A program made the position numbers and the translations under genes. Positions 12,629-27,827 of a stretch of 64,000 nucleotides of DNA are shown piece after piece. The DNA comes from Selenomonas bovis DSM 23594 (GTDB lineage: Bacteria > Bacillota > Negativicutes > Selenomonadales > Selenomonadaceae). Position 1 is the first letter of the stretch. Every line of letters starts with the position of its first letter. Where the stretch lies: contig NZ_KB908386.1 in NCBI RefSeq assembly GCF_000381005.1, forward strand, positions 3,450-67,449. The letters run 5' to 3'. The notes under the pieces were generated by a model. That model saw only the letters and a list, made by a program, of their open reading frames with translations, was not told the origin of the DNA and searched no databases.

Positions 12629-13978
12629 CTATTCTTTTCCTTTGAAACACCTCATGACTTTCTTCGCGAACTGTGTCTGCACGAAGAGGATCACGCGGTC
12701 GCCGGGCAGCAGCACGGACTCGCCGTTCGGGATGACCGCCGCGCCGTCCCGCACGTAGGCGCAGACGAGGCACTCGCGCGGCAGCTTGGCCTGCATGAGC
12801 GGCTTGCCCGCCGCGGGCGCCCCCTCCTGCATGATGACCTCGACCGCCTCCGCCTTCGCCCCCTCGAGCAGCGACACCGACACGACGCCGCCGCGCCGCG
12901 CGAACGCGAGCACCTCGCTCGCCGAGAGCAGCCGCGCCGAGAGCACGACATCGACGCCCACCTTCTCCATGAGATCGACATACTCATTGCGCGCGACGCG
13001 CACGACCGTCTTGTCCGCGCCGAGATGCTTCGCGAGCAGCGCGAGCATGAGGTTCAGCTTGTCGTCCTCCGTGAGGCAGACAACGACATCCGCCTCCGCC
13101 ACGCCCTCCTCGAGCAAGAGATCGATATCCGTGCCGTCGCCGCAGATGGCGATGCCGTTCCTGAGCTTTTCCGCCATGCGCTGGCAGCGCTCGTGCTGCT
13201 TGTCGATGACCTTCACCTCGACGCCCTGCCCGTCGAGCATCGTCGCGAGCGCACGCCCCGCGCGTCCCGCGCCGATGACCATCACGCGGTGGATGCGCCG
13301 CGCGTCGCGCTGCACGAAATTCTGGCTGAACTTCTCGATCTGCTCCGGGATGCCGATGAAATACGCATTGTCATGTGGCAGCAGATAATCGTCGCCGTGC
13401 GGGATGATCATGCGGTGGTCGCGGAAAATCATCCCCGCGAGCACGCCCGGCGGCAGCTCGATATCGCGGAGCTGCCGCCGCGCAAAAGGCGAGCTCCGCC
13501 GCACGCGCGTCTCGAACAGCCGCACCTTCCCATGCGCGAAATCCTCGACATTGAGCGCTGCCGGCGTCATGAGGATGCGGTTGATCTCCGCCGCCGTGAT
13601 GAGCTCCGGATTCAGCATGAGATCGATATCGAAATTCTCCTTGAGATACTCCTTGGCCTCGCCCATGAACTGCATATCGCGGATGCGCGCGATCGTATGC
13701 GCGATGCCGTGCTTCTTCGCGAGGATGCAGGCGACCATGTTCACCTCGTCGCTCGCCGTCACCGCGATGAGGATATCCGCGCCGCGGATGTCCGGCTCGT
13801 TCATCGTGATGGGGCTCGCGCCGTTCGCATGGATCGTGAGCACATCGAGCGTATTCTTCGGCCCCTCGAGCTGGTCGGCATCCTGATCGACCACGACGAC
13901 ATCGAACGCCTCCTTCGACAAAAGCTCCGCAATGCTGTACCCGAGCTTCCCCGCCCCGACAACGACAATCCGCACCAT
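12629..13978 (-). CDS. trkA: Trk system potassium-channel gating protein TrkA
   Basis: 449 aa, the full-length double-RCK form. Two Rossmann NAD-binding domains each start with a glycine motif (VVVGAGKLGYSIAE at ~5; VMVIGAGRAGRAL at ~232) and each is followed by a TrkA_C (RCK-C) domain (~135-215 and ~365-449). It binds NADH/ATP on the cytoplasmic face and gates the TrkH subunits encoded downstream. About 560 bases of repeat-rich sequence separate it from them. Confidence 0.95.
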   Translation of the reverse strand: MVRIVVVGAGKLGYSIAELLSKEAFDVVVVDQDADQLEGPKNTLDVLTIHANGASPITMNEPDIRGADILIAVTASDEVNMVACILAKKHGIAHTIARIRDMQFMGEAKEYLKENFDIDLMLNPELITAAEINRILMTPAALNVEDFAHGKVRLFETRVRRSSPFARRQLRDIELPPGVLAGMIFRDHRMIIPHGDDYLLPHDNAYFIGIPEQIEKFSQNFVQRDARRIHRVMVIGAGRAGRALATMLDGQGVEVKVIDKQHERCQRMAEKLRNGIAICGDGTDIDLLLEEGVAEADVVVCLTEDDKLNLMLALLAKHLGADKTVVRVARNEYVDLMEKVGVDVVLSARLLSASEVLAFARRGGVVSVSLLEGAKAEAVEVIMQEGAPAAGKPLMQAKLPRECLVCAYVRDGAAVIPNGESVLLPGDRVILFVQTQFAKKVMRCFKGKE

Positions 13979-14071
13979 GACCGCTCCTTTCCCCGCATTC
14001 GTATGATTCCTAGTATACGATAGGCGCTATGTTTTTTCAACCCAGCGGCCAGAGCGCCTCATACTGCATGC

Positions 14072-14188: not shown

Positions 14189-15961
14189 TTACTGCAGCAA
14201 GCTCAGGACACTGCTACCGTTCTGGTTCGCCTGGGCGAGCATCGACTGCGCCGCCTGCAGGAGGATGCTGTGCTTCGTGTAGGCGGTCATCTCCTTCGCC
14301 ATATCCGCGTCGCGGATGGCCGACTCAGAGGCCTGCGTGTTCCGGCTCGACGTGATGAGATTGTCCGCCGTCATGCCGAGACGGCTCTCGATCGCGCCGA
14401 TGGTCGTGATCTGGTCGAGCGCCTTGCGCAGGGAGTTGTCGATGAGCGTGAGGGAGGTCTTCGCCTGATCGACGGTCTTGACGCTGAGCTTGCCACCCTC
14501 ATCGTCTGCAAGCCCCATCGCGCGTGCGTGGATGTCCGAGAGCGCCACGCCGATGTTCTGATTCGCGCGCGTGCCGAGCTGGAACATCAGGCTCGTGTGG
14601 CGGCTGAACGTCGGCCAATGCACGGTGAGACCGCCGTCGTACATCGTCGTGTCGCTGTCCGGAAAGTACCAGAACGCGGCCGAACCGCCCTCAGGCACGA
14701 TGTCCTCGCTCGTCTTCTGCTCGCGGCTGCCGCCCGCGTCGTAGCCGGTCGCCGCACCCGTATCGTCATTGTCGAGGTCGATGCCGCAGCACTCCTTGTA
14801 GAACGCGTCGGCATTCGCATACGCGGTCCGATCCGCGACGAAGGCATCCTGCAGCCCCTTGAGCGTCGCGCCCGGCACCGCCGCGCCGATCGCCGTCTCG
14901 AGGCTCTTGCCGCCGCCATTCATGAGCGCCGTCATGAAGCGCGCCATCGAGCCCTCGCCGCCCTTTTTCTCCACGTAGCGCAGGAACGCGAACCCGCCGG
15001 CATAGGGCTGCTGAGTATTCGTGCCGCTGCCGTTCGCGAAAAGTCCCTGATAGGCCGCCGCGTCCATGCTCCGCAGCGTCTGCGTGCGCGTATCGTCCGC
15101 GCCCTGCGTGAGCTCCGCCATGCCCTCGACGATATAGAGCGGCATGTCGGCGAAATCATCGATATTCGCCGACATCACGGCATGCGTGAGCTCATGCGCG
15201 AGCACGCGGTCGAGGTAGATGGCGCTCGCGCTCGACGACTTGCCGTTGACGTTCGTCGTGTCGAGCTTCGCCGTGCTGCTGTCATAGTAGTTCAGGTTCA
15301 CCGTCAGCGTGAGACCGGTCGTATGACTCCCGACATACGAGCTGCTCACGTACGCGAGCGCGTCCGCCTGCGCGCTGCCCGCCGCCTCATGCTTCAGGAT
15401 CACGTCCATCTCCTTCGGCTTCGTATTCGCCTCGTTGAACCGGATGCCGTACGACTGCTCGATGAGCGAGAGCGAGTTCGGGATCCACTCCGTGTGGAGC
15501 GCCTTGATGATGGTATCCTGCGCCGTATCCGCGCGATCCGCGCTACCGTCGAAGAGATAGCGCCCGTTGAACTGGATGCTCGCGTTCTCATCGACCTGAT
15601 CGATCTGCTGGTCGATCTCGCGCTGGATCGTTGCGCGGTCGGCGTCGCTGTTGTGGTCGTTTGCTGCATCGAGCGCCTTCTCCTTGATCGTGCGCAAGAC
15701 ATCGATGGTCGACTGCACCGCGCCCTCCGCTGTCCGCATGAGGCTGCTCGCGTTCTGCGCGTTCGCCTTCGCCTGATCGAGGCCGCGGATCTGCACGCGC
15801 ATGCGCTCGGAGATCGCGTACGCCGACGCGTCGTCACCGGCACCGCCGATTTTCCGGCCACTTGCGACTTTCTTCAGATCTTTCACCAGCTGCGACGAAT
15901 TTTTATTGAGCGTATGGAGCGTCTCTGCCGCCGCCATATTGTGCATGATGACCATTGCCAT
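14189..15961 (-). CDS. Flagellinolysin: flagellin with an inserted HExxH metalloprotease domain
   Basis: 590 aa. Residues 1-~140 are the flagellin D0/D1 N-terminus (MAMVIMHNMAAAETLHTLNK, ASGRKI, SLMRTAEGAVQST) and ~475-590 the C-terminal D1/D0 (ESRLGMTADNLITSSRNTQA, SMLAQANQNGSSVLSLLQ). The hypervariable middle is replaced by a peptidase domain with HELTH (256-260) and a downstream VEGMAE (279-283) that offers the third zinc-ligand glutamate, a gluzincin arrangement. Such proteins, described in Clostridium as flagellinolysin, polymerise into a proteolytic filament surface. A sigma-28-type promoter precedes it and a terminator follows. No other flagellin gene is in the window. Confidence 0.95.
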   Translation of the reverse strand: MAMVIMHNMAAAETLHTLNKNSSQLVKDLKKVASGRKIGGAGDDASAYAISERMRVQIRGLDQAKANAQNASSLMRTAEGAVQSTIDVLRTIKEKALDAANDHNSDADRATIQREIDQQIDQVDENASIQFNGRYLFDGSADRADTAQDTIIKALHTEWIPNSLSLIEQSYGIRFNEANTKPKEMDVILKHEAAGSAQADALAYVSSSYVGSHTTGLTLTVNLNYYDSSTAKLDTTNVNGKSSSASAIYLDRVLAHELTHAVMSANIDDFADMPLYIVEGMAELTQGADDTRTQTLRSMDAAAYQGLFANGSGTNTQQPYAGGFAFLRYVEKKGGEGSMARFMTALMNGGGKSLETAIGAAVPGATLKGLQDAFVADRTAYANADAFYKECCGIDLDNDDTGAATGYDAGGSREQKTSEDIVPEGGSAAFWYFPDSDTTMYDGGLTVHWPTFSRHTSLMFQLGTRANQNIGVALSDIHARAMGLADDEGGKLSVKTVDQAKTSLTLIDNSLRKALDQITTIGAIESRLGMTADNLITSSRNTQASESAIRDADMAKEMTAYTKHSILLQAAQSMLAQANQNGSSVLSLLQ

Positions 15962-16009: not shown

Positions 16010-16036
16010 TTATCGACTGCACGCTTTCGCGTCTTA
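16010..16036 (-). promoter_or_regulatory. Sigma-28 (FliA)-type promoter of flagellinolysin
   Basis: Minus strand TAAG (16033-16036), exactly 15 bases, GTCGATAA (16010-16017), against consensus TAAA-N15-GCCGATAA. The -35 TAAG is the end of the repeat at 16034-16068. Confidence 0.7.
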
Positions 16037-16081: not shown

Positions 16082-16219
16082 TCAGCTACGCTTGCGGAAC
16101 ACCAGCCCGCGAGCGCCCGCACCGCCGCCTGCCGTCTCATGCGCTTGATACGCGTAGAGCGCCGCCCCCAACAGCGCGAGCAAAGCCACGAGCCCCACGA
16201 CCTTTTTCCTACCCTGCAT
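16082..16219 (-). CDS. Small single-span membrane peptide (45 aa)
   Basis: ATG at 16219 with GGGGGAGG upstream; the product starts MQGRKKVVGLVALLALLGA and ends FRKRS. A basic N-terminus, one hydrophobic helix (VVGLVALLALLGAALYAY) and a basic C-terminus suggest a small inner-membrane protein. An imperfect inverted repeat ATCATGA-N5-TCATGAT lies upstream. It sits inside a 473-bp stretch bounded by inverted copies of the MITE terminal repeat. Function unknown; short ORF, so moderate confidence. Confidence 0.45.
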   Translation of the reverse strand: MQGRKKVVGLVALLALLGAALYAYQAHETAGGGAGARGLVFRKRS

Positions 16220-16264
16220 AACCCTGCCTCCCCCTGTAAGCTGGTATTATGGGCTCGCGAAAAA

Positions 16265-16671: not shown

Positions 16672-17283
16672 CAAATAAGCGATTATTTTCGCTTTCCCTT
16701 CGAGACCAGCGGGTATATGAGAGAGGGTATTTGGGGGACGACAAAAATCGTACCAAACTATCACGGGAAGCATACAGTCCTGAGGAGTATTATGGACAGA
16801 AACGTCCCGGATGAGTTTTTCCTTGGCAACGATTTATCAAAATGGGATTATCAAAAGGGACCGAAGCATATTCTACGCAAATCGGCAAATGGTCATCAAT
16901 ATATGTATTCGGAAAGGCCAATCGCTTTTCCAGACCCCATCGACAGGCCAGCACGCACCATGCTGACGAGCGAGGCGACAACAAATCGCAGCACCCATGT
17001 CATCTGCGATATCGACCGCAATGAGTTGCGCTTGCTGACGCCAGAGGAAGCGGAAGCTATACAGGGATTCAAAAAGGGCTGGACAAATACTGGAATGAGC
17101 AAACGGTTTCGGTATTTTTGCATGGGAAATGCGCTTGTGACAGGATGCGTTACTGTTATGGGAGTGACGTTAAACCGCATTCTGGCAGGAAAAGCGATTA
17201 AAAAATTCCTATGTGGAGACCTTCGCGTTGCTAGACGATTTTCGCAAGAAAAACGGGATTATGCAAACAACACTTGCCACTAG
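16672..17283 (+). pseudogene. C-terminal fragment of a DNA (cytosine-5) methyltransferase
   Basis: Reading through 16672-17283 gives QISDYFRFPFETSGYM..., collinear with the last ~190 residues of the intact methyltransferase at 28045-29244 (AISDAFGFAFDTAGYM...). Target-recognition tail, motif IX (RPARTMLTSEATTNRSTH) and motif X (MGNALVTG) remain; motifs I-VIII with the catalytic PCQ are absent. Homology begins within 3 bases of the MITE end, and an in-frame TGA lies in the MITE. The gene was therefore cut by deletion or insertion and is not functional. It points to a cytosine methyltransferase once linked to the island. Confidence 0.85.
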
Positions 17284-17536
17284 TAATCCAGCTTCTGTCG
17301 TTGTGGATGATTTGCCCAACATTGATACCTGTAGTTTAGCCGCAGAGGAATCTTATAAGCAACTTCGCAATGTCTACTATCGTCATGCGCACTTGCGCCA
17401 AATCAAGGAGCAGTTGACGAGCCATCAACAAAAAGATATTTTAGATGCACTGGACACCGAAGAAGCCAGCCTGTTGGCTTCGCTACGATTAATCCACGTT
17501 GATTGTCAAAAAGAGGAATCATTGCGACTCTTTTAG
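17261..17536 (+). CDS. Small hypothetical protein, 91 aa
   Basis: Overlaps the 3' end of the methyltransferase fragment in another frame. The ATG at 17261 is used; a GTG at 17213 would add 16 residues. The product is charged and mostly helical (EESYKQLRNVYYRHAHLRQ, DALDTEEASLLASLRL) with no recognised domain. No strong ribosome binding site. It lies tail-to-tail with the PLD-SNF2 gene. Confidence 0.4.
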   Translation: MQTTLATSNPASVVVDDLPNIDTCSLAAEESYKQLRNVYYRHAHLRQIKEQLTSHQQKDILDALDTEEASLLASLRLIHVDCQKEESLRLF

Positions 17537-17597
17537 TGATCTGCTGCAAATCCCATCTAAAAATAGCGGGTACCCAATGACACCTTTTCGCTAATCT

Positions 17598-20192
17598 TTA
17601 TGCATCCATCCCGAAGATTTCTGCAAAAATCATGGCGAGATCTTCGTCATCCGTCGTGGTTTGCTCCATTCTCTCGTCGTTAATGGCATCAAGCATAAGC
17701 CTGTTCTTCTCTTCGAGACGCTGATAAACTGTTTGGTCAAGAGACACCATGTTTCCTTGGAAATCAAACGCCTCCATCATGTAATAGTATTGTGTATATT
17801 GGCCGGCAGGAAGACCCAAACGATGAATACGGTCTTTTGATTGCAGCATATGAACGAGGTTGTAGCTATATTCCAGATATACCGCATCATGGCATACATC
17901 ATGGAGCGACACTGATTCCGCAAGCGTGTGAGGATTGGTAACTAAAACATCCAACCTGCTACCATGAAAGTCATTCAGAACATTTTCACGCGTATCCATC
18001 TCGGTACATCCATCTATGGATTCAGCGCGGATTCCACGATGCAGCAATTCTTCTTTGACCTCTCTGATTGAGCGGCGAAAGATACACCAGCAAATCGCTT
18101 TCTTTCCATCAGCCACAAGCCTCACCAATTTGCGAAGGCAGGCATCCATTTTAGTGGATATTTTAGGGCATTTACTGACAAGTTCGCTAACTTCTGTTGA
18201 ATAATCCTTGAAATCAATATCCCCGATGTCTTCTGCTTCAAAATCAAGGATTTCCATCAAATCTGATGCGTCGATACTGTCCAGAAGCATTCTGGGATTC
18301 GATTCCAGTTGCAGCACACGAATAAACCAAAGAAGCCTGTTGCTTCGGTGATAGGCTTCTTTTAGTATATAGAATAGCCTATTCTCTATATTGCTCGCTT
18401 GCACATTGCATTCTATATCCGGATTTGCTGGAGGAACTTCGAGCTGCTCTTTCGTTGTCCTGCAGTAGAAAGGTTTCAGTTTGCGATTGATATCCTCTTT
18501 TTCTGTTTCTGTCGGATTTTTCAACTCACTTTGGCGATACCCAAAGAATGCTCGATATTCATTTGGAAACATCAGGTGAAGCATATTATAGATGTCCACA
18601 TACCCGTTAGGGATAGGCGTTCCCGTCATTACCGTGACATAATGAGCAACTTGCGCTATATATAACGCGGATTCGGCTCGTTTTCCATTGATTCCTTTGA
18701 TTTTGTGGACTTCATCGAAAACCAGCATGGTGTCTTGCCTGGATACCAAATCTCGTAAATCTTGTTCCCAGTTTGCCAGGCTTTCATAATTGAACAGGAA
18801 AAGATTGTATTCTTCATAATGGTGACGAAGAGAAAGTTGCTTTTGTTCCCTATCCTCCCAAGCGTTATCATGCAAGTTGAACACTCTTAATTGCTGCTTT
18901 TTGCCAAAGCAAGCACGAAATTCGTGTTGCCAGGATCCAAATGCATTTTTCGGGCAAACGACGAGAATGCGTTTCATGCCAACTTGCTCTTGCAAAAAAG
19001 CGAACATACCAAGCACCGATGATGTCTTGCCAGAGCCGGGGACTGAAAAATTCCCGCTCTTTATCATCATTGTCATGAAAAATGCATCCCACATCTGGCG
19101 GCTTTCTAACCGCCTTTCTAAAGAGGAACTGACAATTTCCCTGAACTGTTGGAATTTGGGCAGCATTCTCTTGTCGTGCCGTTTGATGTCTATCCCCAAC
19201 GTAGAGCGTTTTTGAATATGAATCTCCTGGCTTTCGATGAATTCACGGAGCCGATTGGTCATGGCATAACGATAGCCGTAATCTAAACGTGGAATTTTCA
19301 TATTCAATATGCTGTCAATCTTTTTGTAGTCAATATAGGTAAGGCCGTCTTTGAAATAAATCATCCCAGGCTTTGTGCTTTTTATATACTTGCGCAGCCT
19401 AGTCCTGACAAAGCCCCGGTCGAGCAGATACTTTCCGCCATCGCCAAGATTCATATGCAAAATCAATCGTCCATTATCAAAATCAAGAATGCAAGCATTC
19501 TCCAGCAAAAGGATGTCTTCTTTTATCATTATTCCCTTGTCGTGCCTCATTATTTCTTGCAATACCACGTCATCAATCTCTCGTACGACAACGTCACCAT
19601 AACCGCCCTTCCAATATGCATCAAAAATGCGTTGGCTCTTATTGATGCCGCGCGTATAAAATCCATTCTTGTCCAACCAACTGCATACTACGCTAAACGA
19701 TTCATGATTTTGTCGCATTGCCGCAACGGTTTCATTATTAGATCCGGTAAACTTTATGCGGTTCCCTGCAGCATCAGACAGTATGCCGAATTTGTCGTGG
19801 AATATCCCCTCCCTGGTAAAGGCAACTTTTATATCAAGGCATCCCATTGCAATCAGCCGCGCCAGATTCGACAAGCCTTTTTCAAGGAATATGTTGCCAT
19901 CTGTCTGCAGAGATTCCAGCAATTCCTGTCTGACACGGCTCCTCACGGCATAGCCAACCCGAATTTCTTCGAGTTCTTCCTCGGGTATCTCCTTTGAAAC
20001 TACCAATCGATATTTATGTCCCATGCCTGCAAAATATTCCACGCCTGTTGCATAGATTGCCAAGGCTCTCGCAGAAAAATAAGCACTGGCACGGTCATAG
20101 CTTACCGCCTCCATTAACACTGGATTGAAAAACGATTCAACGACATCGTCTTCAGTGGTATAAAACGAGTCAAACTGGAGGTCAGTGAACAT
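17598..20192 (-). CDS. PLD-family nuclease fused to SNF2-like helicase
   Basis: 864 aa. N-terminal phospholipase-D-type domain with one HKD motif: H132-x-K134, D140, then G150-S-N-N (FHDKFGILSD, FTGSNNE), as in BfiI or Nuc-type DNA nucleases. After a ~230-residue linker comes an SF2 (SNF2/DEAD-like) motor: Walker A GSGKT (386-390), motif II DEVH (493-496), motif III TGTP (523-526), motif VI QSKDRIHRLG (784-793). The pairing suggests ATP-driven DNA translocation coupled to cleavage, as in restriction-like systems such as NgoAVII, CglI and DISARM, where these activities are on separate proteins. It overlaps the ParB-like gene by 11 bp and is the last gene of the operon. Confidence 0.88.
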   Translation of the reverse strand: MFTDLQFDSFYTTEDDVVESFFNPVLMEAVSYDRASAYFSARALAIYATGVEYFAGMGHKYRLVVSKEIPEEELEEIRVGYAVRSRVRQELLESLQTDGNIFLEKGLSNLARLIAMGCLDIKVAFTREGIFHDKFGILSDAAGNRIKFTGSNNETVAAMRQNHESFSVVCSWLDKNGFYTRGINKSQRIFDAYWKGGYGDVVVREIDDVVLQEIMRHDKGIMIKEDILLLENACILDFDNGRLILHMNLGDGGKYLLDRGFVRTRLRKYIKSTKPGMIYFKDGLTYIDYKKIDSILNMKIPRLDYGYRYAMTNRLREFIESQEIHIQKRSTLGIDIKRHDKRMLPKFQQFREIVSSSLERRLESRQMWDAFFMTMMIKSGNFSVPGSGKTSSVLGMFAFLQEQVGMKRILVVCPKNAFGSWQHEFRACFGKKQQLRVFNLHDNAWEDREQKQLSLRHHYEEYNLFLFNYESLANWEQDLRDLVSRQDTMLVFDEVHKIKGINGKRAESALYIAQVAHYVTVMTGTPIPNGYVDIYNMLHLMFPNEYRAFFGYRQSELKNPTETEKEDINRKLKPFYCRTTKEQLEVPPANPDIECNVQASNIENRLFYILKEAYHRSNRLLWFIRVLQLESNPRMLLDSIDASDLMEILDFEAEDIGDIDFKDYSTEVSELVSKCPKISTKMDACLRKLVRLVADGKKAICWCIFRRSIREVKEELLHRGIRAESIDGCTEMDTRENVLNDFHGSRLDVLVTNPHTLAESVSLHDVCHDAVYLEYSYNLVHMLQSKDRIHRLGLPAGQYTQYYYMMEAFDFQGNMVSLDQTVYQRLEEKNRLMLDAINDERMEQTTTDDEDLAMIFAEIFGMDA

Positions 20193-21411
20193 CTGCTTTC
20201 CCCTTTAAATCGTTAAGGAGTTCTATCAGCTCATCTGCCTTTCCGCGTATGTCCTGAAGTTGCGTTTCGGACAATTTGGAAAATATATTCGTGTCCAGCT
20301 CTGCAATCGCATCAATCGCTTTGTCCAAGACATGAGCGGCCTGTTCTCGGTTCGCTGTTGCACGAATACGTTCGTCGTATTTGTCCGTTGTCTGCAGCGC
20401 CTCTCTGGCAAGAGCGGATTCGCGTTTCATGCTTTCCAGTTTTTCAAAGCGAACTTTCTCTTGCGCATCTTTGCTGTCACTGATTTGATCTGCGACTGTT
20501 TCCGCGATATCCATCTGCTTTTCGACGAATTCTCTTCGCTGACGTTTATCTTTCAATATTTTTTTGATTTTGCGCATATATCTCGTCATGTCAGCTTTGG
20601 GGGCCAAGGCTAAATTCGAGAATATGATTTGTTTCACGTCTTCCTGCTCATCCTCGTCTTTTTCACTCTTGATGATTGGATATATTTCTCGCAAAGGACC
20701 ATCCAGCTTCTCTTTTCTGGCAATATAGAACTGAAATGGGTGCTGGATGAAATCAAGATACTCCACCATTAATTGCGCTATTTCAAGGTCTTTGTTGACC
20801 TCCTTGAGCGGCTGGTTGATGCTTTTTGCATATTCGTCCGCCGTCAGCAGTTTGTTCCTTACGACATCATTATACAAGCCCGCCAGACGATCGATTGGAT
20901 CGTAATCGACACGTGCCTCTTCGCCATGCTGAACCATCAGCTCAAGCATCTTGATATGCTTGGCATCACGTTCCATGTTCTCGGTCAGGATTACAGTCTC
21001 GAAAAAACCAAATTTTGCAGGATTCTTACGGTTAAGTCTGCGCAAGCAGGTGAACCTGCGGTTCCCATCCACGACGCGTCCATCGCTTAAGGTAATGCCC
21101 GCTTCACGTTGATCAACCAATTTGATGTTGTTTTCTGTCTGTTCAATTTTTTCTGGATTGCTGGCAACGATGAATTTCTCGATTTGATCGTTATACGCTT
21201 CAATATCATCCCGGCTGATATCCTGTCCGTTGTGTTCAGAGCGATATTCTTCCAGCCATGTTGCAATACGGTCGTTCTGGTCATTATAAAAGAGTGCGTC
21301 CAGGCGCACACGATATACTGGATAGGGTTTCGTTTTCCCAGCAATCGTCAGCTTGCGGGTCATTTCCGTTCTCTCAACCAATCCGCTAACTTCGTCTGTC
21401 AATAGGTTCAT
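20182..21411 (-). CDS. ParB/sulfiredoxin-fold-like protein
   Basis: 409 aa. ITLSDGRVVDGNRRFTCLRR (DGNRRF at 115-120) matches the nucleotide-binding ParB_N motif, but it lies about 60 residues later than in chromosome-partition ParB; the ~90 residues before it are an extra N-terminal segment. The rest is charged and helical, with a likely coiled coil at ~285-400 (RMRKIKKILKDKR-type heptads). There is no ParA or parS context. The start has AGGAGG 8 bases upstream; it begins 3 bases after the 1107-aa gene and overlaps the PLD-SNF2 gene. Probably the NTP-dependent DNA-clamp or regulatory partner of those two; inference. Confidence 0.7.
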   Translation of the reverse strand: MNLLTDEVSGLVERTEMTRKLTIAGKTKPYPVYRVRLDALFYNDQNDRIATWLEEYRSEHNGQDISRDDIEAYNDQIEKFIVASNPEKIEQTENNIKLVDQREAGITLSDGRVVDGNRRFTCLRRLNRKNPAKFGFFETVILTENMERDAKHIKMLELMVQHGEEARVDYDPIDRLAGLYNDVVRNKLLTADEYAKSINQPLKEVNKDLEIAQLMVEYLDFIQHPFQFYIARKEKLDGPLREIYPIIKSEKDEDEQEDVKQIIFSNLALAPKADMTRYMRKIKKILKDKRQRREFVEKQMDIAETVADQISDSKDAQEKVRFEKLESMKRESALAREALQTTDKYDERIRATANREQAAHVLDKAIDAIAELDTNIFSKLSETQLQDIRGKADELIELLNDLKGKADVH

Positions 21412-21414
21412 CTG

Positions 21415-24400
21415 TCAAACCTCCTGAAAATACGCATCGTAATCACGATACAGTTTATGCATAATGCTATTATAGTACAAATCGTTCTCTCTTTCCGCAG
21501 CGATTTCTATCACCACATGGTTATCCTTATATTCCATACCATATTCTTCACGGAGCATATCCATAAAATCATCAATATCAATCGATACCTCATGCTCCAT
21601 GACATCCGCAATAAATCCTTCCATCGATATTGTGTCTGCGCCACTGTAAAACAGTCTTGTGTTTCCGTGCCTTAATGATTGGAATGCTCCGCTGAATCTC
21701 AAAATCGACATCAGAAAATAATCATCGAATCCCAAGCAATCAACAGACGTCTTTCCGCCTTTAGCACGAAAATAAGAAATTGTAAAATAGGATTCTTCCA
21801 TAGCGGCTTTGACCTCATAGGCAACTGACACAAGTCTTTCTTTCGTCCATCCTTCCTTCTCCAAACGACTAAGCATAATAAAATGGTTTGGTGCAAATTC
21901 TATGGCCTGTAACTTCTGTTGCATAGGCCAAATCCACCATGTCCTGATGTTCGTGTCCGCTTCAGTAAACTCAATTATTCCGCGTTTGTTGGCAGTATAG
22001 ATGAACGCTTCTCTGAAGCTTGAAAAATCTTTTTTATAAATCGTTTGGTCATTTGCTACATACCCCAGTTTATCCAAATTATAGCGGTTTAAAATATCCG
22101 GGGAATCAGGGCACACAGCATTAAATATCTCTTTTGCCATCAAAAGGCTATAATACGGCTGTGTCAATGCCATGGATAAATTTTTTAGGTCTTCTTCAGA
22201 TGCTTTCTGAACGGCAATAGAATAAGTATCACCTTGTAAATATTTTTTTGCAAAACAAGCATAATTGGCGAAAAAAGTTGACTTCGGAATTCCATATTGC
22301 TCTCCATAGTACGAAGCAAATTCTTCTTTTGTCGCTTCACCAAGTTCCCGCAAGGCTCCAAGCACTTGCCGCTCCCGGTTCGCATTCCCAAAAGCCAGAA
22401 TTGGCATCCTGCATACGGACATACGCATTTCCTTTGCTGCGGCATGGCTTACTATTTTTTTCAGAAGATTGTGCAGCTCATAGGCATCCTTCAGGCCGTA
22501 TTCCTCCGCCACATCGGGATACCTGTCAAGGAAATACTGCGTCCCAATCTCGACATCTCTGCCAGCCAGCTCCTCAAAATGAAAATCTCGCAGCAGCACC
22601 TTGGCATCGACGTCTCGCGTGTCGTAAAAACGAAAGATTTTTCCCTGCTTCCACAACGTGCAGGGGCTTCTGCTCAGTGCCACTTCCCCATAACGCGCCG
22701 TCAGGGTAACCCTCTCGTCCTTGTCACAATCTAGCATGAAAAGGAATACGGCATACTTTTTGTAAAAATCTTCAATCCCAATATCCTCCTCACAATAGTG
22801 CGACAGGAAATAGTTCAGGAAACTTTGCCTGTTTATCGGCAAGTATGTGCCATCCACATTGACGCAATCGGCATATGCGGCTTTTTTCAGGAGAATGGCA
22901 ATTTTTTTGCGGTAGCCTAGCGGTATATTCTCGTCCCGCAAGGAATCGGCAGGACTCTTTTTGCGGCTTCCTCCGTACCTATGCGCCAGATAATAGTATC
23001 CTGTTGCGTCGACGCCAAAGGCATTTCGCATCTCATCAGGAGAAAACGAATACTCGTAAAAGACCTCGCAGAACCTGTCCTCATAGAGCGCATGACCCTT
23101 CCTGCGGATTGTCCGGATTGCCTTCGCCTCTATTTGCCTGACCCTTTCCCTCGTCACCGCCAATTCGCGCCCGACCTCTTCCAGCGTGGCATTGCCTGAC
23201 CTTCTCGCGAGAACTAGCCGCTCCCTCTCCGTGAGATCCTTCGTATGGGCGATGTACTCGCGAAACGTTTCCCGCATCTTGACATAGCCCATGTTGTCCT
23301 TCTCAACGAAGCCTTCCTCTGTCAGGTCGCGCAGGGTGGCACCTAGAGGGAGATACCCTGCAAGCCCCCATGGGAGCTGTGCACCGATTTCCTGCTCAAT
23401 CTCGTCATAGGGGCAGGGCCAGTCCCGGTCTGTCACCGCGCATATCGCCTGCCGGACGGCCTCGGCCATGCACTCTGAGTCGCCGATGGCACGTAGGAAC
23501 GGCTCGTTCGCCGTGATTTTCTCTGCCGTGTCCCCGAAGGGGGCCAGCTGTTCCTTGCCTTGCCGCAGCACCTCCAGCAAGGCAACGCAAAGTTCGTTCC
23601 TCGCGCCGCCATGCTTTTCCTGGAAGGACAGGACATCGGCAATCAACTGGCTATAAAGCCCCGTCCTTCCCGATTGTCCTTCCACATCGATTACAGCGCG
23701 GCTGCCGTATCTTTCAAGCAGCTCTCCCTGTAGCCGTATGATTTCCCGCACAGATTTTTCCCCTAGGTTTCGTACGCTTCGCCAGTCGCTTTCCCTCACA
23801 CCGAGGAAGGACGCCAAGTCCACAATCCGCTTTTTCATCTGTTGGCTGCGCACGATGCCGTTGAAGGAGCGTACGGACAGGTTCGCTTGGAGAAGGCTCA
23901 GTAGCTCGTCTCGGCGAATATCAGGGAATCGCGTCTCGCTGGCGGCATCCATGCCGGATTGATAACTTTTCCCTTCACGCCAAGCGGCAAGCATGGCAGT
24001 GGCGTTCTGGCGCAGACGCTCTTGAAACGCCATGATTTCCTTGACCGTCTTTCGCCCCAGATTGCGTACCCGATACCAGTCTTCCTCTTCCATCGCGAGG
24101 AAAGTCTTCACGTCTGTGACCTGCCGGCTTGCCTTGATGCCGTGCACAGCGCGCACAGAAAGATTCTCTTTCAGAAAAGCGAAGAATTCCTCCCGTCGCG
24201 GGCTGTCATCTGGAAGGGGGCGAGAAACACCTTCTTGCGTCGCTTTCCCTTTTGAAAAGTCCATACTGACTATGCTAGGTTCAGCCAATGCCCTAACCAG
24301 CACAGATGGTTCGCGAGATTTGTCCTCTTCCTCGGCCCGTTTTTCTGCAGATTCATCATCGATGTCTTTTATCAGCGAGGCAACCTCTGCGAGAACTTTC

Positions 24401-24738
24401 TTGTACTCCGTCGGGTTATTCTTATATAATTTCACGGTATCGATAAACAACCGCGTCGGTTTCGTATAAAGCGATTTCCCGCTCCAAGCAGATTCCATAC
24501 TTATCATTTGGGAAGCAATGCCACTTCGAGATCGATATGAATCATCAATCGTTAGGCCAGAGGAGACAGCCATCTGTCTCAATTTTCCCGAACAATCTGC
24601 AATGGCCTCTGAACGCGTCATTTCTCCATTGACGTATTGCAAGTAGGAGTTTAAGAGAGCAACTGCCTCATACTTGGTGAAAGGAACGTTTTTGGATTTT
24701 GCCACGCCTCGTATCACTTCCTCTGTATCATACGGCAT
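21415..24738 (-). CDS. 1107-aa protein with two alpha-CTD-like modules and a sigma-70 region-4 module
   Basis: Residues ~15-125 form an N-terminal helical module (FTKYEAVALLNSYLQYVNGE ... MESAWSGK). Two repeats follow, ~186-240 (NLSVRAVHGI...VRNLGRKTVKEI) and ~282-340 (NLSVRSFNGI...VRNLGEKSVREI), that closely resemble the helix-hairpin-helix C-terminal domain of RNA polymerase alpha. Residues ~500-545 (LTERERLVL, TLEEVGRELAVTRERVRQIE) match sigma-70 region 4. The remaining ~560 residues are unrecognised. No sigma region 2 is present, so this is not a normal sigma factor. Likely a DNA-binding sensor or transcription-apparatus mimic heading a three-gene operon. The ATG lacks a clear ribosome binding site. 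Confidence 0.8.
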   Translation of the reverse strand: MPYDTEEVIRGVAKSKNVPFTKYEAVALLNSYLQYVNGEMTRSEAIADCSGKLRQMAVSSGLTIDDSYRSRSGIASQMISMESAWSGKSLYTKPTRLFIDTVKLYKNNPTEYKKVLAEVASLIKDIDDESAEKRAEEEDKSREPSVLVRALAEPSIVSMDFSKGKATQEGVSRPLPDDSPRREEFFAFLKENLSVRAVHGIKASRQVTDVKTFLAMEEEDWYRVRNLGRKTVKEIMAFQERLRQNATAMLAAWREGKSYQSGMDAASETRFPDIRRDELLSLLQANLSVRSFNGIVRSQQMKKRIVDLASFLGVRESDWRSVRNLGEKSVREIIRLQGELLERYGSRAVIDVEGQSGRTGLYSQLIADVLSFQEKHGGARNELCVALLEVLRQGKEQLAPFGDTAEKITANEPFLRAIGDSECMAEAVRQAICAVTDRDWPCPYDEIEQEIGAQLPWGLAGYLPLGATLRDLTEEGFVEKDNMGYVKMRETFREYIAHTKDLTERERLVLARRSGNATLEEVGRELAVTRERVRQIEAKAIRTIRRKGHALYEDRFCEVFYEYSFSPDEMRNAFGVDATGYYYLAHRYGGSRKKSPADSLRDENIPLGYRKKIAILLKKAAYADCVNVDGTYLPINRQSFLNYFLSHYCEEDIGIEDFYKKYAVFLFMLDCDKDERVTLTARYGEVALSRSPCTLWKQGKIFRFYDTRDVDAKVLLRDFHFEELAGRDVEIGTQYFLDRYPDVAEEYGLKDAYELHNLLKKIVSHAAAKEMRMSVCRMPILAFGNANRERQVLGALRELGEATKEEFASYYGEQYGIPKSTFFANYACFAKKYLQGDTYSIAVQKASEEDLKNLSMALTQPYYSLLMAKEIFNAVCPDSPDILNRYNLDKLGYVANDQTIYKKDFSSFREAFIYTANKRGIIEFTEADTNIRTWWIWPMQQKLQAIEFAPNHFIMLSRLEKEGWTKERLVSVAYEVKAAMEESYFTISYFRAKGGKTSVDCLGFDDYFLMSILRFSGAFQSLRHGNTRLFYSGADTISMEGFIADVMEHEVSIDIDDFMDMLREEYGMEYKDNHVVIEIAAERENDLYYNSIMHKLYRDYDAYFQEV

Positions 24739-25144
24739 TTCAGTAACAATTTGCTTTCAAAAATGGAATCTCCTTACGTTTGACGCGAACCCCAAACAGC
24801 ATGATCGGATACAAGAAAGACCGAACCTGACGGCTCGGCCTGGTCTCCAAATGATACCATCTGGGCAACTCTGTTACGCATATTATATCGAGCCTTGTTG
24901 CGAAATACAAGAAATTTCTGCACTGGGCATATTTTATGTCTTTTATGTTTTCGTATCCTTTTCGACGCTCTGTGCCTTTAATCCTGCTTTTACCGCAAAA
25001 AAGCCGTCATACCTGCCTTTTCCTCTTGCGGAACAAGAATTTGCGGGTTTTGTCAACTTCATCTCGATACAACGAACGAGATGGCTATAATAAACCATGT
25101 TGGAATAAATATTCCATTTAGAATCAAAGGAAGGAGGAACCGGC
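24739..25144. promoter_or_regulatory. Divergent control region of the island operon and the LexA-like gene
   Basis: No gene in these 406 bases. Operon promoter on the minus strand: TTGTAT (24905-24910), 17-bp spacer, TATAAT (24882-24887), giving a leader of ~137 nt with an imperfect hairpin (AGACC...GGTCTTTCTT) at ~24808-24850. LexA-like promoter on the plus strand: TATAAT at 25086-25091. The inverted repeat CATCTCG-N10-CGAGATG (25060-25083) ends 2 bases before that -10 and is a likely operator. Confidence 0.55.
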
Positions 25145-25597
25145 TTGCGCACAAAAAACAAGGCCAACTTTCGCCTGCTGGAGTCCTTTATCGACGGCTA
25201 CCAAGAGAAACATGGGATTTCTCCCACGACGAAGGACATTTCCCGAGGGACAGGGCTTTCCACCGGCACGATTTCCCGCTATCCGCAGTATATGCGGGAA
25301 CAGGGGATGATTGACTACCAAGGGCACAAGGGTTTTGTCACCCGCAAGATGCGGAAGATGCGGGACGCGACGGAGCTGGTGCCGCGCCTCGGGAGCATCG
25401 CCTGCGGCATCCCGAAGTTCGCCGAGGGGAATATCGAGGAGTATGTGCGGCTGCCGATAGCGCTTTTTGGGAGCGGCGATTTTTTCCTGTCCGGCAAACA
25501 GGGAACCATCAGGGGAATTTTCCATTCCCAGCAGATGGTTTTCTGTTTGCCGGATTTTTTGTGCAAAAAATTCTGTCGACCGTTAAGGAACCACTGA
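25145..25597 (+). pseudogene. Truncated LexA-like (S24) repressor
   Basis: TTG start with AAGGAAGGAGG 8 bases upstream. Residues 1-~70 are a LexA-type winged HTH (GISPTTKDISRGTGLSTGTI). Residues ~78-116 are the start of the S24 autopeptidase domain, with the cleavage site as SIACGIP and then LPIALFGSGDFFL. The sequence then departs from the family just before the catalytic Ser (GDSM), at a 65-bp hairpin, so the Ser-Lys dyad is missing. What remains could still bind DNA but cannot self-cleave. It diverges from the island operon and may have been its repressor. Confidence 0.75.
25490..25562. terminator. 65-bp hairpin with T-run inside the LexA-like ORF
   Basis: Three stacked stems: TCCGGCAAACAG/CTGTTTGCCGGA, AACCATC/GATGGTT and GGGAAT/ATTCCC around TTTCC, then TTTTTT. 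It behaves as an intrinsic terminator on the plus strand and marks the point where the LexA homology is lost. Confidence 0.7.
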
Positions 25598-25602
25598 TTA
25601 AT
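25583..25602 (+). repeat. Solo MITE terminal repeat
   Basis: TTAAGGAACCACTGATTAAT, just downstream of the hairpin and 38 bases before the right island repeat. Confidence 0.7.
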
Positions 25603-25640
25603 GCAAGGATTTTTCCGTTCTGCGTCGAAAGCAACGATAA

Positions 25641-25713
25641 GGGCATTGGAAGGGATATGGCGACGTATTTTCGCGATAATTGAGTCTAATTATCGCGTAG
25701 TTGTACATAGTAA
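25641..25713 (+). repeat. 73-bp direct repeat, right copy (island boundary)
   Basis: Partner of 16390-16462 in the same orientation, with the same CGCGATAATT-N6-AATTATCGCG hairpin. It is followed at once by a ~95-bp family repeat. Confidence 0.85.
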
Positions 25714-25876
25714 ACTCAACGAACAAACGTCCACTTTGTGGACATTGTGCGCCCGTCCTTGCAGTAAATCCAGCCAATCGCGCTGCGCCTGCGGCTTGCG
25801 CTCTTGGGGATTTACATAGTAAACTCAACGCACAAACGTCCACTTTGTGGACATTGTGCGCCCGTCCTTGCAGTAA
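25705..25876 (+). repeat. 109-bp tandem of the ~95-bp dispersed repeat (1.6 copies)
   Basis: The unit ACATAGTAAACTCAACG + ACAAACGTCCACTTTGTGGA... starts at 25705 and again at 25814, a 109-bp period. The second copy stops at CAGTAAAT (25876), where unique sequence begins. Other copies: 1-97, 27929-28022 (reverse), 47627-47718. Confidence 0.8.
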
Positions 25877-26056
25877 ATGACACGCGAAGTCATGCTCGAC
25901 GCCCTCGAACACGACTACAACGACCTCATGAACCTCGGCGAAATCTACGGCGCCCGCGGCGTAGAGGCAGCCATCGACACCATCCACCTCTACGAGAAAG
26001 CCCTCGAGCTCGCCTACGCCAAGACTACCGACTACGGTGAGGAAAGCGAGCACTAA
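25877..26056 (+). CDS. Small acidic hypothetical protein, 59 aa
   Basis: Encodes MTREVMLDALEHDYNDLMN ... YGEESEH. The first ATG spans the junction between the truncated repeat and unique sequence, so the original upstream part may have been replaced; an internal ATG at 25892 is an alternative. No ribosome binding site fits. A perfect 22-bp hairpin terminator follows 12 bases after the stop, which argues for a real transcription unit. No recognised domain. Confidence 0.4.
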   Translation: MTREVMLDALEHDYNDLMNLGEIYGARGVEAAIDTIHLYEKALELAYAKTTDYGEESEH

Positions 26057-26068
26057 TTACAACTTTCG

Positions 26069-26118
26069 AAACACAATCGAGGGGACGATTACAGAAAATC
26101 GTCCCCTCGATTGTGTTT
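26069..26118. terminator. Perfect 22-bp hairpin terminator
   Basis: AAACACAATCGAGGGGACGA-TT, loop ACAGAA, exact inverted copy ending ATTGTGTTT. Symmetric A/T tails allow termination in both directions. Confidence 0.8.
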
Positions 26119-26369
26119 GTCGAAAACCACTTTCAAGATTTCTCACGCGATAACGGCATAGGCAGACCTACTGTCCAAGCCCCTGTCACCCTGGACCAGC
26201 AAAAAATCCAGAAAAGAAAAAAGGCATACAGGCCACCCTTGTCGAAACAAGCAACGTACAAGCATCCATTCCACGGATATCGTGCGCCCGTCCCGGGATA
26301 CTTCCCGCCGATTACTCCGTGCCCCGATTATCATAACAACATATCGTCAAGAAAGAAGGCTGCTCTAGA
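26119..26369. other. Intergenic upstream of the Sau3AI-like gene, no gene
   Basis: AT-richer stretch with no supported ORF. A TATCAT -10-like hexamer lies at about 26329, but no clear -35 accompanies it. Confidence 0.5.
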
Positions 26370-27827
26370 ATGCGCGAAGATTTATATGACAAGACAAGTC
26401 CGACGGATATAGAGGCATACGGCAAGAAGATGATTGGAAAAACTATGCGGCAGATATATAAGTCACGCATTGACAAGGAACTAATCCACGACAAGCAAGA
26501 GGGCTATCTATCCTCCCATGAGGACAAGAACTACAAGGGCGGCATCGGCAACCTGATAGAGGAGTGCTGGTTCGGATATGCGGCCAATTCGGATGCTCAG
26601 GCAGATTTCTCCGATGCAGGCGTCGAACTGAAGGTCACGCCGTATATGAAGACCAGCCATGGATTCCGTGCCAAAGAGCGCCTCGTACTGACGATGATCA
26701 ACTATATGGAAATCGTCAAAGAACGCGATTTCGAACACAGCCACCTGTGGGAGAAAGCGCAGCTCATCCTGCTGGTATGGTACCTGCATGCAAAGGGTAT
26801 CAGCGATATGGACAGCACGGTGGATTTCGTACAGCTCTTCACACCTCCACCAGAGGATCTCGCAATCATACGCAGCGATTATCAGAAAATCATCACAAAA
26901 ATCAAGGCCGGCAAAGCCCACGAACTCTCAGAAGGTGACACTTTGTATCTGGGTGCCTGCACGAAAAGCTCTAATTCCAAGGTGAGGCGTCAGCAGCCGT
27001 TCAGCGATACAGAGGCAAAGCCCCGTGCGTTCTCCTTCAAAAACAGCTATATGACCTATATACTCCTGCACTATATCATGCCCGGGAAACAGACATACGA
27101 ACCGATTGTCAAGGAAGGTCAGCACATCGCCAACTTCGAAAGATATGTCACTGATAGGATTGCCAGGTATCGGGGGGCCAGCATTTCTAATCTAGCTGCC
27201 CATTTCCAAATTGCCTCACACGCCAAGAATATTCCGGCGATGCTGGCTTTCCGTATCCTCGGTGTGACAGGGAACAACTGCGAGGAATTCGAAAAAGCAG
27301 GCATCGCCGTCAAGACCATCCGCATCCAAAGGAATGGCCGTATCAGAGAGAACATGTCATTCCCGTCAATAAACTATCGAGAACTTGCCAGGGAGAATTG
27401 GGAGGATTGCACATTCGGAAACTATCTGCGTAATACGAGATTCTTCTTCGTAATATACCACGAGGATTCGGATGGGGAATATCGTCTGCAAGGAGGGCTG
27501 TTCTGGAATATGCCAGCCAAAGACCTGGAAGGCGATGTGCGCGCGGTGTGGCAGGAAACCCACGACATCATCAGTAGGGGGCAACTGTCACTGACGTGCA
27601 GCAGGAACGGCACGATCATCAACAACCTGCCGAAAAAAGCAAACCATCCGATATCTCACGTCCGGCCCCATGCCAGGACCCGCGATGATACCTCCCCTTT
27701 GCCCGAAGGAACGCATATCCATATAGGAAAAGGCGTCGCCTGGAGCAATCCGGATGCTTATACAAAACATTGCTTCTGGCTCAACAACAACTACATCCTG
27801 AGACAAATCAAGCAGGCGGGAAACTGA
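26370..27827 (+). CDS. Sau3AI-family type II restriction endonuclease (GATC-type)
   Basis: 485 aa, close to Sau3AI length. The N-terminal MutH-like catalytic domain has IGNLIEECWFG, then DAGVELKVTPY, which supplies the D...ExK metal-binding residues near 82-93. The C-terminal half corresponds to the second, allosteric MutH-like domain of Sau3AI. Such enzymes cut unmethylated GATC sequences in incoming DNA. The m5C methyltransferase gene follows convergently and vsr beyond it, making a complete restriction-modification unit. GATC specificity is inferred from the family. Confidence 0.88.
   Translation: MREDLYDKTSPTDIEAYGKKMIGKTMRQIYKSRIDKELIHDKQEGYLSSHEDKNYKGGIGNLIEECWFGYAANSDAQADFSDAGVELKVTPYMKTSHGFRAKERLVLTMINYMEIVKERDFEHSHLWEKAQLILLVWYLHAKGISDMDSTVDFVQLFTPPPEDLAIIRSDYQKIITKIKAGKAHELSEGDTLYLGACTKSSNSKVRRQQPFSDTEAKPRAFSFKNSYMTYILLHYIMPGKQTYEPIVKEGQHIANFERYVTDRIARYRGASISNLAAHFQIASHAKNIPAMLAFRILGVTGNNCEEFEKAGIAVKTIRIQRNGRIRENMSFPSINYRELARENWEDCTFGNYLRNTRFFFVIYHEDSDGEYRLQGGLFWNMPAKDLEGDVRAVWQETHDIISRGQLSLTCSRNGTIINNLPKKANHPISHVRPHARTRDDTSPLPEGTHIHIGKGVAWSNPDAYTKHCFWLNNNYILRQIKQAGN

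What the first reader, a model, noticed from the sequence alone, without database searches (positions are those of the whole stretch)
14189..15961. Flagellinolysin: a flagellin that is also a zinc protease
HELTH plus VEGMAE inside the hypervariable region, between canonical flagellin ends. Reported in Clostridium; a copy here, under a sigma-28-type promoter, would make an enzymatic filament in a diderm Firmicute. No conventional flagellin is in the window.
Basis: partly seen in the sequence, partly recalled or inferred. Interest (0 to 1): 0.6.

Follow-up and report, generated by a model that had tools for sequence, protein, structure and literature searches.

The report
Protease-bearing flagellin (flagellinolysin) in Selenomonadaceae
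This gene encodes a flagellin with a built-in zinc protease, a kind of protein already described in many bacteria; what seems new is that in this bacterial family the same protease unit also occurs with its two halves in swapped order, both in other flagellins and in proteins that are not flagellins.

Summary
Window 14189-15961 (-) encodes a 590-aa flagellin with intact Flagellin_N and Flagellin_C ends. Between them lies a zinc-peptidase domain (HELTH 256-260, third ligand E279). NCBIfam's flagellinolysin equivalog matches above its cut-off (268 vs 205 bits). An AlphaFold model of the insert (pLDDT 94) is a gluzincin closest to clostridial collagenases (Z 11.9). Catalytic residues are conserved in 50 of 51 canonical relatives, substitutions show purifying selection, and a sigma-28-like promoter precedes it. 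This is a new member of a known, experimentally proven family (Eckhard 2017, 2020), reported in many phyla including a Gram-negative. The genome has four conventional flagellins elsewhere, so a mixed filament is likely. The gene occupies a site where Selenomonas bovis has a HlyD-ABC exporter operon (a HlyD stub remains), and its nearest homologue found is in another genus: probable lateral acquisition. Following relatives turned up something less expected: in Selenomonadaceae the peptidase also occurs in swapped subdomain order (apparent circular permutation), in 22 sampled flagellins and 40 sampled non-flagellin proteins, about half of the latter with RTX-like repeats (type I export). I found no report of either, in a library that lacks most subscription journals.

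The parts
14189..15961 (-). flagellinolysin gene, 590 aa
15542..15949 (-). Flagellin_N helical region (residues 5-140)
   Evidence: Pfam PF00669 E 2.9e-34
14960..15517 (-). peptidase core subdomain (residues 149-334)
   Evidence: alignments A1/A2; collagenase-like fold
15182..15196 (-). zinc-binding HELTH (residues 256-260)
   Evidence: conserved
15125..15127 (-). third zinc ligand E279 in VEGMAE (residues 278-283)
14606..14950 (-). C-terminal helper subdomain of the peptidase (residues 338-452)
   Evidence: HMM; falls in the stretch aligned with collagenase G
14195..14449 (-). Flagellin_C helical region (residues 505-589)
   Evidence: Pfam PF00700 E 8.4e-18
16010..16036 (-). sigma-28-like promoter TAAG-N15-GTCGATAA
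   Evidence: sigma-28 gene in genome
16082..16219 (-). truncated HlyD-family stub (45-aa ORF) marking the replaced exporter operon
12629..13978 (-). TrkA, downstream flanking gene and anchor of the site comparison

Best explanation
A genuine, probably active flagellinolysin (MEROPS M101 kind). It is likely transcribed from a sigma-28-type flagellar promoter, exported by the flagellar type III apparatus, and built into the filament through its D0/D1 ends alongside conventional flagellins encoded elsewhere in the genome. The collagenase-like gluzincin domain then lies on the filament surface. There H256, H260 and E279 would hold zinc and E257 would act as general base to cut extracellular proteins or peptides. 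Shown here: gene, family membership, catalytic residues, predicted fold, purifying selection, promoter-like element, other flagellins in the genome, replaced exporter operon. Inferred: expression, incorporation into filaments, activity, substrates and biological role (peptide nutrition or interaction with neighbouring cells).
For: NF033876 equivalog 267.7 bits above its 205 cut-off. Flagellin ends intact; the full-length model matches flagellin filaments at Z about 22. Insert model pLDDT 94.2, pTM 0.93; best solved matches are clostridial collagenases G, T and H and lugdulysin, Z 11.3-11.9 over 218-233 residues. HExxH + EGxA intact in 50/51 canonical-order Selenomonadaceae copies and 11/11 copies from other families of the class. 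Window versus nearest homologue L014: dS about 1.0, dN 0.18; peptidase core dN 0.247, dS 1.133. Promoter-like element at -75, 1/200 shuffles; FliA-type sigma factor in genome, 256 bits. The published family is experimentally active in C. haemolyticum filaments and as the H. gracilis recombinant domain (PMC5595980, PMC7643111).
Against: No expression, proteomic or activity data for this copy. The promoter has 2 mismatches from consensus. The gene sits outside a flagellar cluster, and its Shine-Dalgarno match (GGGGGT before the ATG) is weak. Dead relatives exist (L046, L055), so family alone does not guarantee activity, although this copy has every catalytic residue.
Confidence: 0.9

Rival explanations
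1. The protein is a secreted, filament-independent flagellin-like protease: exported through the flagellar channel and released, not incorporated.
For: The gene lies alone by trkA and away from other flagellin genes; secretion of a free flagellin-like protein is mentioned for Campylobacter FlaC in PMC7643111.
Against: Both polymerisation ends are full length and close to consensus and model well on filament flagellins; the C. haemolyticum homologue is in filaments.
Confidence: 0.12
2. A flagellin whose insert has lost protease activity and is kept as a surface domain (pseudoenzyme).
For: Degenerate active sites exist in relatives: L046 (EQIAG), L055 (RGLTE), and the L019 permuted copy lacking the third ligand.
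Against: All catalytic residues are present in this copy and in nearly all relatives; substitutions show purifying selection.
Confidence: 0.07
3. HELTH/VEGMAE is a chance motif in an ordinary flagellin hypervariable region.
For: HExxH alone is short and common by chance; Pfam shows no peptidase match in the insert.
Against: NF033876 match over 383 of 384 positions, collagenase-like predicted fold, conservation in over 70 relatives.
Confidence: 0.01

Closest known systems
Flagellinolysin FliA(H) of Clostridium haemolyticum (MEROPS M101; Eckhard et al. 2017, PMC5595980)
   Same: Flagellin ends with an HExxH gluzincin insert in the hypervariable region, collagenase-like model, coexistence with conventional flagellin.
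   Different: Selenomonadaceae sequence; 23 residues from the first His to the third-ligand Glu versus 29 by the published numbering (H233, E262); activity not shown here; the calcium site was not tested.
HgrFlaMP of Hylemonella gracilis (PMC7643111)
   Same: Flagellinolysin of a diderm bacterium, shown to be a Ca/Zn-dependent protease.
   Different: Betaproteobacterium; the window copy has not been assayed.
Clostridial collagenase peptidase domain (M9; ColG, ColH, ColT)
   Same: Best solved-structure matches, with one alignment running across core and helper subdomains (Z up to 11.9).
   Different: Only 13-16% identity; here the domain is embedded in a flagellin.
Lugdulysin (M30, 7bb8)
   Same: Zinc metallopeptidase fold; top Foldseek hit (E 2.3e-4) and Z 11.6.
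   Different: Not a flagellin; different peptidase family.

Membership tests
[quoted passage not shown]
   PF00669 and PF00700 well above cut-offs
Flagellinolysin (NF033876 / MEROPS M101) | Equivalog model above curated cut-off | tested here: met
   267.7 vs 205 bits, profile 1-383/384
Flagellinolysin (NF033876 / MEROPS M101) | HExxH plus downstream EGxA third ligand in the hypervariable region | tested here: met
   residues 256-260 and 279; conserved in relatives
Flagellinolysin (NF033876 / MEROPS M101) | Zinc-dependent proteolytic activity | not testable with these tools
   requires a biochemical assay
Flagellinolysin (NF033876 / MEROPS M101) | Incorporation into the filament | not testable with these tools
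   requires filament proteomics or microscopy; D0/D1 ends intact
Flagellinolysin (NF033876 / MEROPS M101) | Putative calcium-binding site near the active site | not tested
   the loop after HExxH differs in length from C. haemolyticum; no structure-based check was possible
Gluzincin peptidases (clan MA), collagenase-like | Gluzincin fold | tested here: met
   predicted model only: AF2 insert pLDDT 94; ColG/ColT/ColH and lugdulysin Z 11.3-11.9
Sigma-28 regulon gene | TAAA-N15-GCCGATAA-like promoter and a FliA sigma factor in the genome | tested here: met
   10 of 12 positions, 1/200 shuffles; TIGR02479 256 bits; transcription not tested
Circularly permuted (helper-before-core) flagellinolysin, as found in relatives | Helper subdomain precedes core | tested here: not met
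   the window copy is canonical core-then-helper

The most novel reading that the evidence does not exclude
The flagellinolysin protease is a mobile exported cassette in Selenomonadaceae that has undergone circular permutation (C-terminal subdomain moved ahead of the HExxH subdomain). It is displayed by two export routes: on flagellin filaments in canonical or permuted order, and in non-flagellin proteins, about half of those sampled with RTX-like repeats typical of type I secretion, nearly all in permuted order. The window gene is a canonical copy, probably acquired laterally at a site where a HlyD-ABC exporter operon stood.
Probability: 0.7. Interest if true: 0.6.

Novelty: new member of a known kind. 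Interest (0 to 1): 0.42.

Why it matters
The window gene extends a proven but little-studied enzyme-filament family into Selenomonas-type gut and rumen bacteria, where cultured species (S. ruminantium, Anaerovibrio) carry relatives that could be tested. The wider comparison gives a concrete evolutionary question: the same collagenase-like protease appears in canonical and apparently permuted order, on flagella and in RTX-type proteins, so its origin and its swapping between export routes can be traced and tested. Current annotation misses the permuted forms, which fall below NF033876's cut-off.

Tried and rejected
Sequence search of the PDB with the peptidase-core profile found no relative, so the fold had to be tested by structure. 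Fold searches with the full-length model listed only flagellins, so the insert was folded alone. An alignment meant for folding the permuted insert misplaced the helper rows and was dropped; the permuted form therefore has no structure model here. I considered a single origin of the permutation: the careful tree needs 3 changes of order, but the AU test does not reject one clade (p 0.13), so the number of events stays open. Recent-transfer evidence from base composition was not found: gene GC (63%) matches TrkA and the MCP gene. Paper searches for a permuted form found nothing; no search was made for RTX metallopeptidases as such, and most subscription journals are not in the library.

Full report
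Observation. The open reading frame at window 14189-15961 (-) encodes 590 aa. Pfam finds Flagellin_N at 5-140 and Flagellin_C at 505-589 and nothing in between. NCBIfam finds the flagellinolysin equivalog NF033876 across its whole length at 267.7 bits, above the curated 205. HELTH is at 256-260 and the glutamate of VEGMAE at 279.

What it is. Flagellinolysins are published: Eckhard et al. 2017 (PMC5595980) described 86 sequences in 74 species from several phyla, with proteolytic filaments in Clostridium haemolyticum and complete loss of cleavage of a quenched peptide on mutating the HExxH glutamate. The 2020 follow-up (PMC7643111) counts 265 sequences in 194 species, places them in MEROPS family M101, and shows activity in the Gram-negative Hylemonella gracilis. 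The window protein meets the sequence criteria that could be tested here.

Fold. The full-length AlphaFold model (pLDDT 83) lists only flagellins among its best matches. The insert alone (residues 144-455, 43-row alignment) gives pLDDT 94.2 and pTM 0.93. Its best solved relatives are lugdulysin and clostridial collagenases (Foldseek E 2.3e-4 and 4.7e-3; VIA-align Z 11.9 to collagenase G over 231 residues, model 2-293 against chain 428-716). The alignment runs across both the core and the helper subdomain in the same order as in collagenase. The core profile has no relative in the PDB by sequence.

Selection and active site. Against the nearest homologue (L014, 73% identity) dS is about 1.0 and dN 0.18 overall; in the core dN is 0.247 and dS 1.133. 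HExxH plus EGxA is intact in 50 of 51 canonical Selenomonadaceae copies, 21 of 22 permuted flagellins, 40 of 41 non-flagellin permuted copies (counting L136, which reads EGAS) and 11 of 11 copies from other families of the class. L055, a degenerate canonical copy, fell below that count's length limit.

Expression and filament. A TAAG-N15-GTCGATAA element lies 75 nt upstream (1 of 200 mononucleotide shuffles as good), and similar TTTAAG...CGATA elements lie 66-81 nt upstream in several relatives, though some of those are no better than shuffles taken singly. The genome encodes a FliA-type sigma factor. It has four conventional flagellins on other contigs (430, 604, 435 and about 437-445 aa, depending on the start codon of the last) and FlgL. 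So the window protein is likely one component of a mixed filament, as in C. haemolyticum; this is inference.

Distribution and history. Of 189 Selenomonadaceae genomes, 53 exceed the NF033876 cut-off. In the window's genus five of seven do, and the two others carry copies split into two frames. The nearest homologue found is in another genus (L014 = G184, Selenomonas sp. RUG11133, 73%; identity of the two records checked), whereas four genus-mates' copies are 50-53% identical. TrkA shows the opposite: 82-96% to genus-mates, 78% to G184. Upstream of trkA, Selenomonas bovis RUG10837 (L220, from G001, whose flagellinolysin record equals L025) has a HlyD-ABC-ABC2-ABC2 operon. In the window, homology to the start of that operon covers 16108-16231 and includes most of a 45-aa HlyD-like stub (16082-16219); the flagellinolysin gene takes the place of the rest, and homology resumes near 14040, just upstream of trkA. 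The stub alignment scored 71 against at most 26 in 50 shuffles. This points to lateral acquisition, or relocation of a divergent paralogue, into this site; base composition matches neighbouring genes.

Unexpected relatives. Many partial NF033876 hits in Selenomonadaceae cover only the peptidase core. Fetching 60 regions and scanning with HMMs built from canonical copies gave these architectures among distinct open frames: FlgN-core-helper-FlgC (45; window type); FlgN-helper-core-FlgC (22); helper-core without flagellin ends (40, of which 21 have three or more RTX-like motifs); two double flagellins FlgN-core-helper-FlgC-FlgN-FlgC; and one helper-core-helper-core. These counts reflect my choice of loci, not prevalence. 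Pfam confirms RTX repeats in the one such protein submitted (L135, E 2.3e-27), and another non-flagellin copy (L098) lies beside an ABC transporter gene. Canonical and permuted flagellins lie in tandem in the isolate S. ruminantium ATCC 12561 (L019) and in a single-contig genome (L124, from G153), so the swapped order is not merely a metagenome-assembly effect.

Because helper and core together align in one run with the collagenase peptidase domain, the swapped order is best read as circular permutation. No model of a permuted copy was made, so simple domain shuffling is not excluded. Canonical order in collagenases and in flagellinolysins from other families of the class suggests that canonical is ancestral; this is inference. 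In a core+helper tree the sampled non-flagellin permuted copies form one clade (bootstrap 99, aLRT 96), and the window copy groups with L014 (100/100) among canonical copies. A single origin of the permutation is not rejected (p 0.13). No paper found mentions a permuted form. The window's genome has only the canonical copy.

Verdict. The finding is correct and belongs to a known family; its own novelty is modest. The permuted and RTX-type relatives are the more surprising result, supported by sequence but not yet by structure or experiment.

Noticed in passing
L019:4216-5976, L124:5459-7294, L123, L125, L126, L127, L131, L132, L133, L134, L138, L139, L141, L163, L164, L172, L179, L182, L185, L186, L190, L053:1161-2924: Flagellins whose peptidase insert has the helper subdomain before the HExxH core (apparent circular permutation); they score below NF033876's cut-off.
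   Followed up: yes
L098/L140, L128, L130, L135, L137, L153, L155, L160, L161 and others: Non-flagellin proteins, some over 2,900 aa, with the same peptidase in permuted order, many with RTX-like repeats.
   Followed up: partly
L038:7889-11215 and L055:6001-9048: Single open frames holding two complete flagellins head to tail, the first a flagellinolysin (degenerate active site in L055). Both are from metagenome assemblies.
   Followed up: partly
L170:1-2901 (-): A helper-core-helper-core open frame, a possible intermediate for permutation; one core has lost its active-site residues.
   Followed up: no
L168:3282-5627: A 782-aa non-flagellin open frame with the peptidase in canonical core-then-helper order, unlike the other non-flagellin copies.
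   Followed up: no
L057 and L058: Flagellinolysin split into two frames within the core; assembly error or pseudogene not distinguished.
   Followed up: no
window 16717-27827: Segment with defence-type genes: PLD-SNF2 protein (PbeA-like, 17601-20192, 43% GC), a 1107-aa protein with Sigma70_r4 and RNA_pol_A_CTD domains (21418-24738), truncated C5 methylase (16717-17280), and a MutH-like type II restriction enzyme (26370-27827).
   Followed up: partly
L005:2208-2783 (-): In the window's genome, a 191-aa open frame ending like a flagellin C-terminus upstream of a conventional flagellin; short flagellin or pseudogene.
   Followed up: no
L026, L029, L033, L034, L036, L039, L043: Large flagellins (about 930-1060 aa) lie next to flagellinolysin genes in several relatives.
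   Followed up: no
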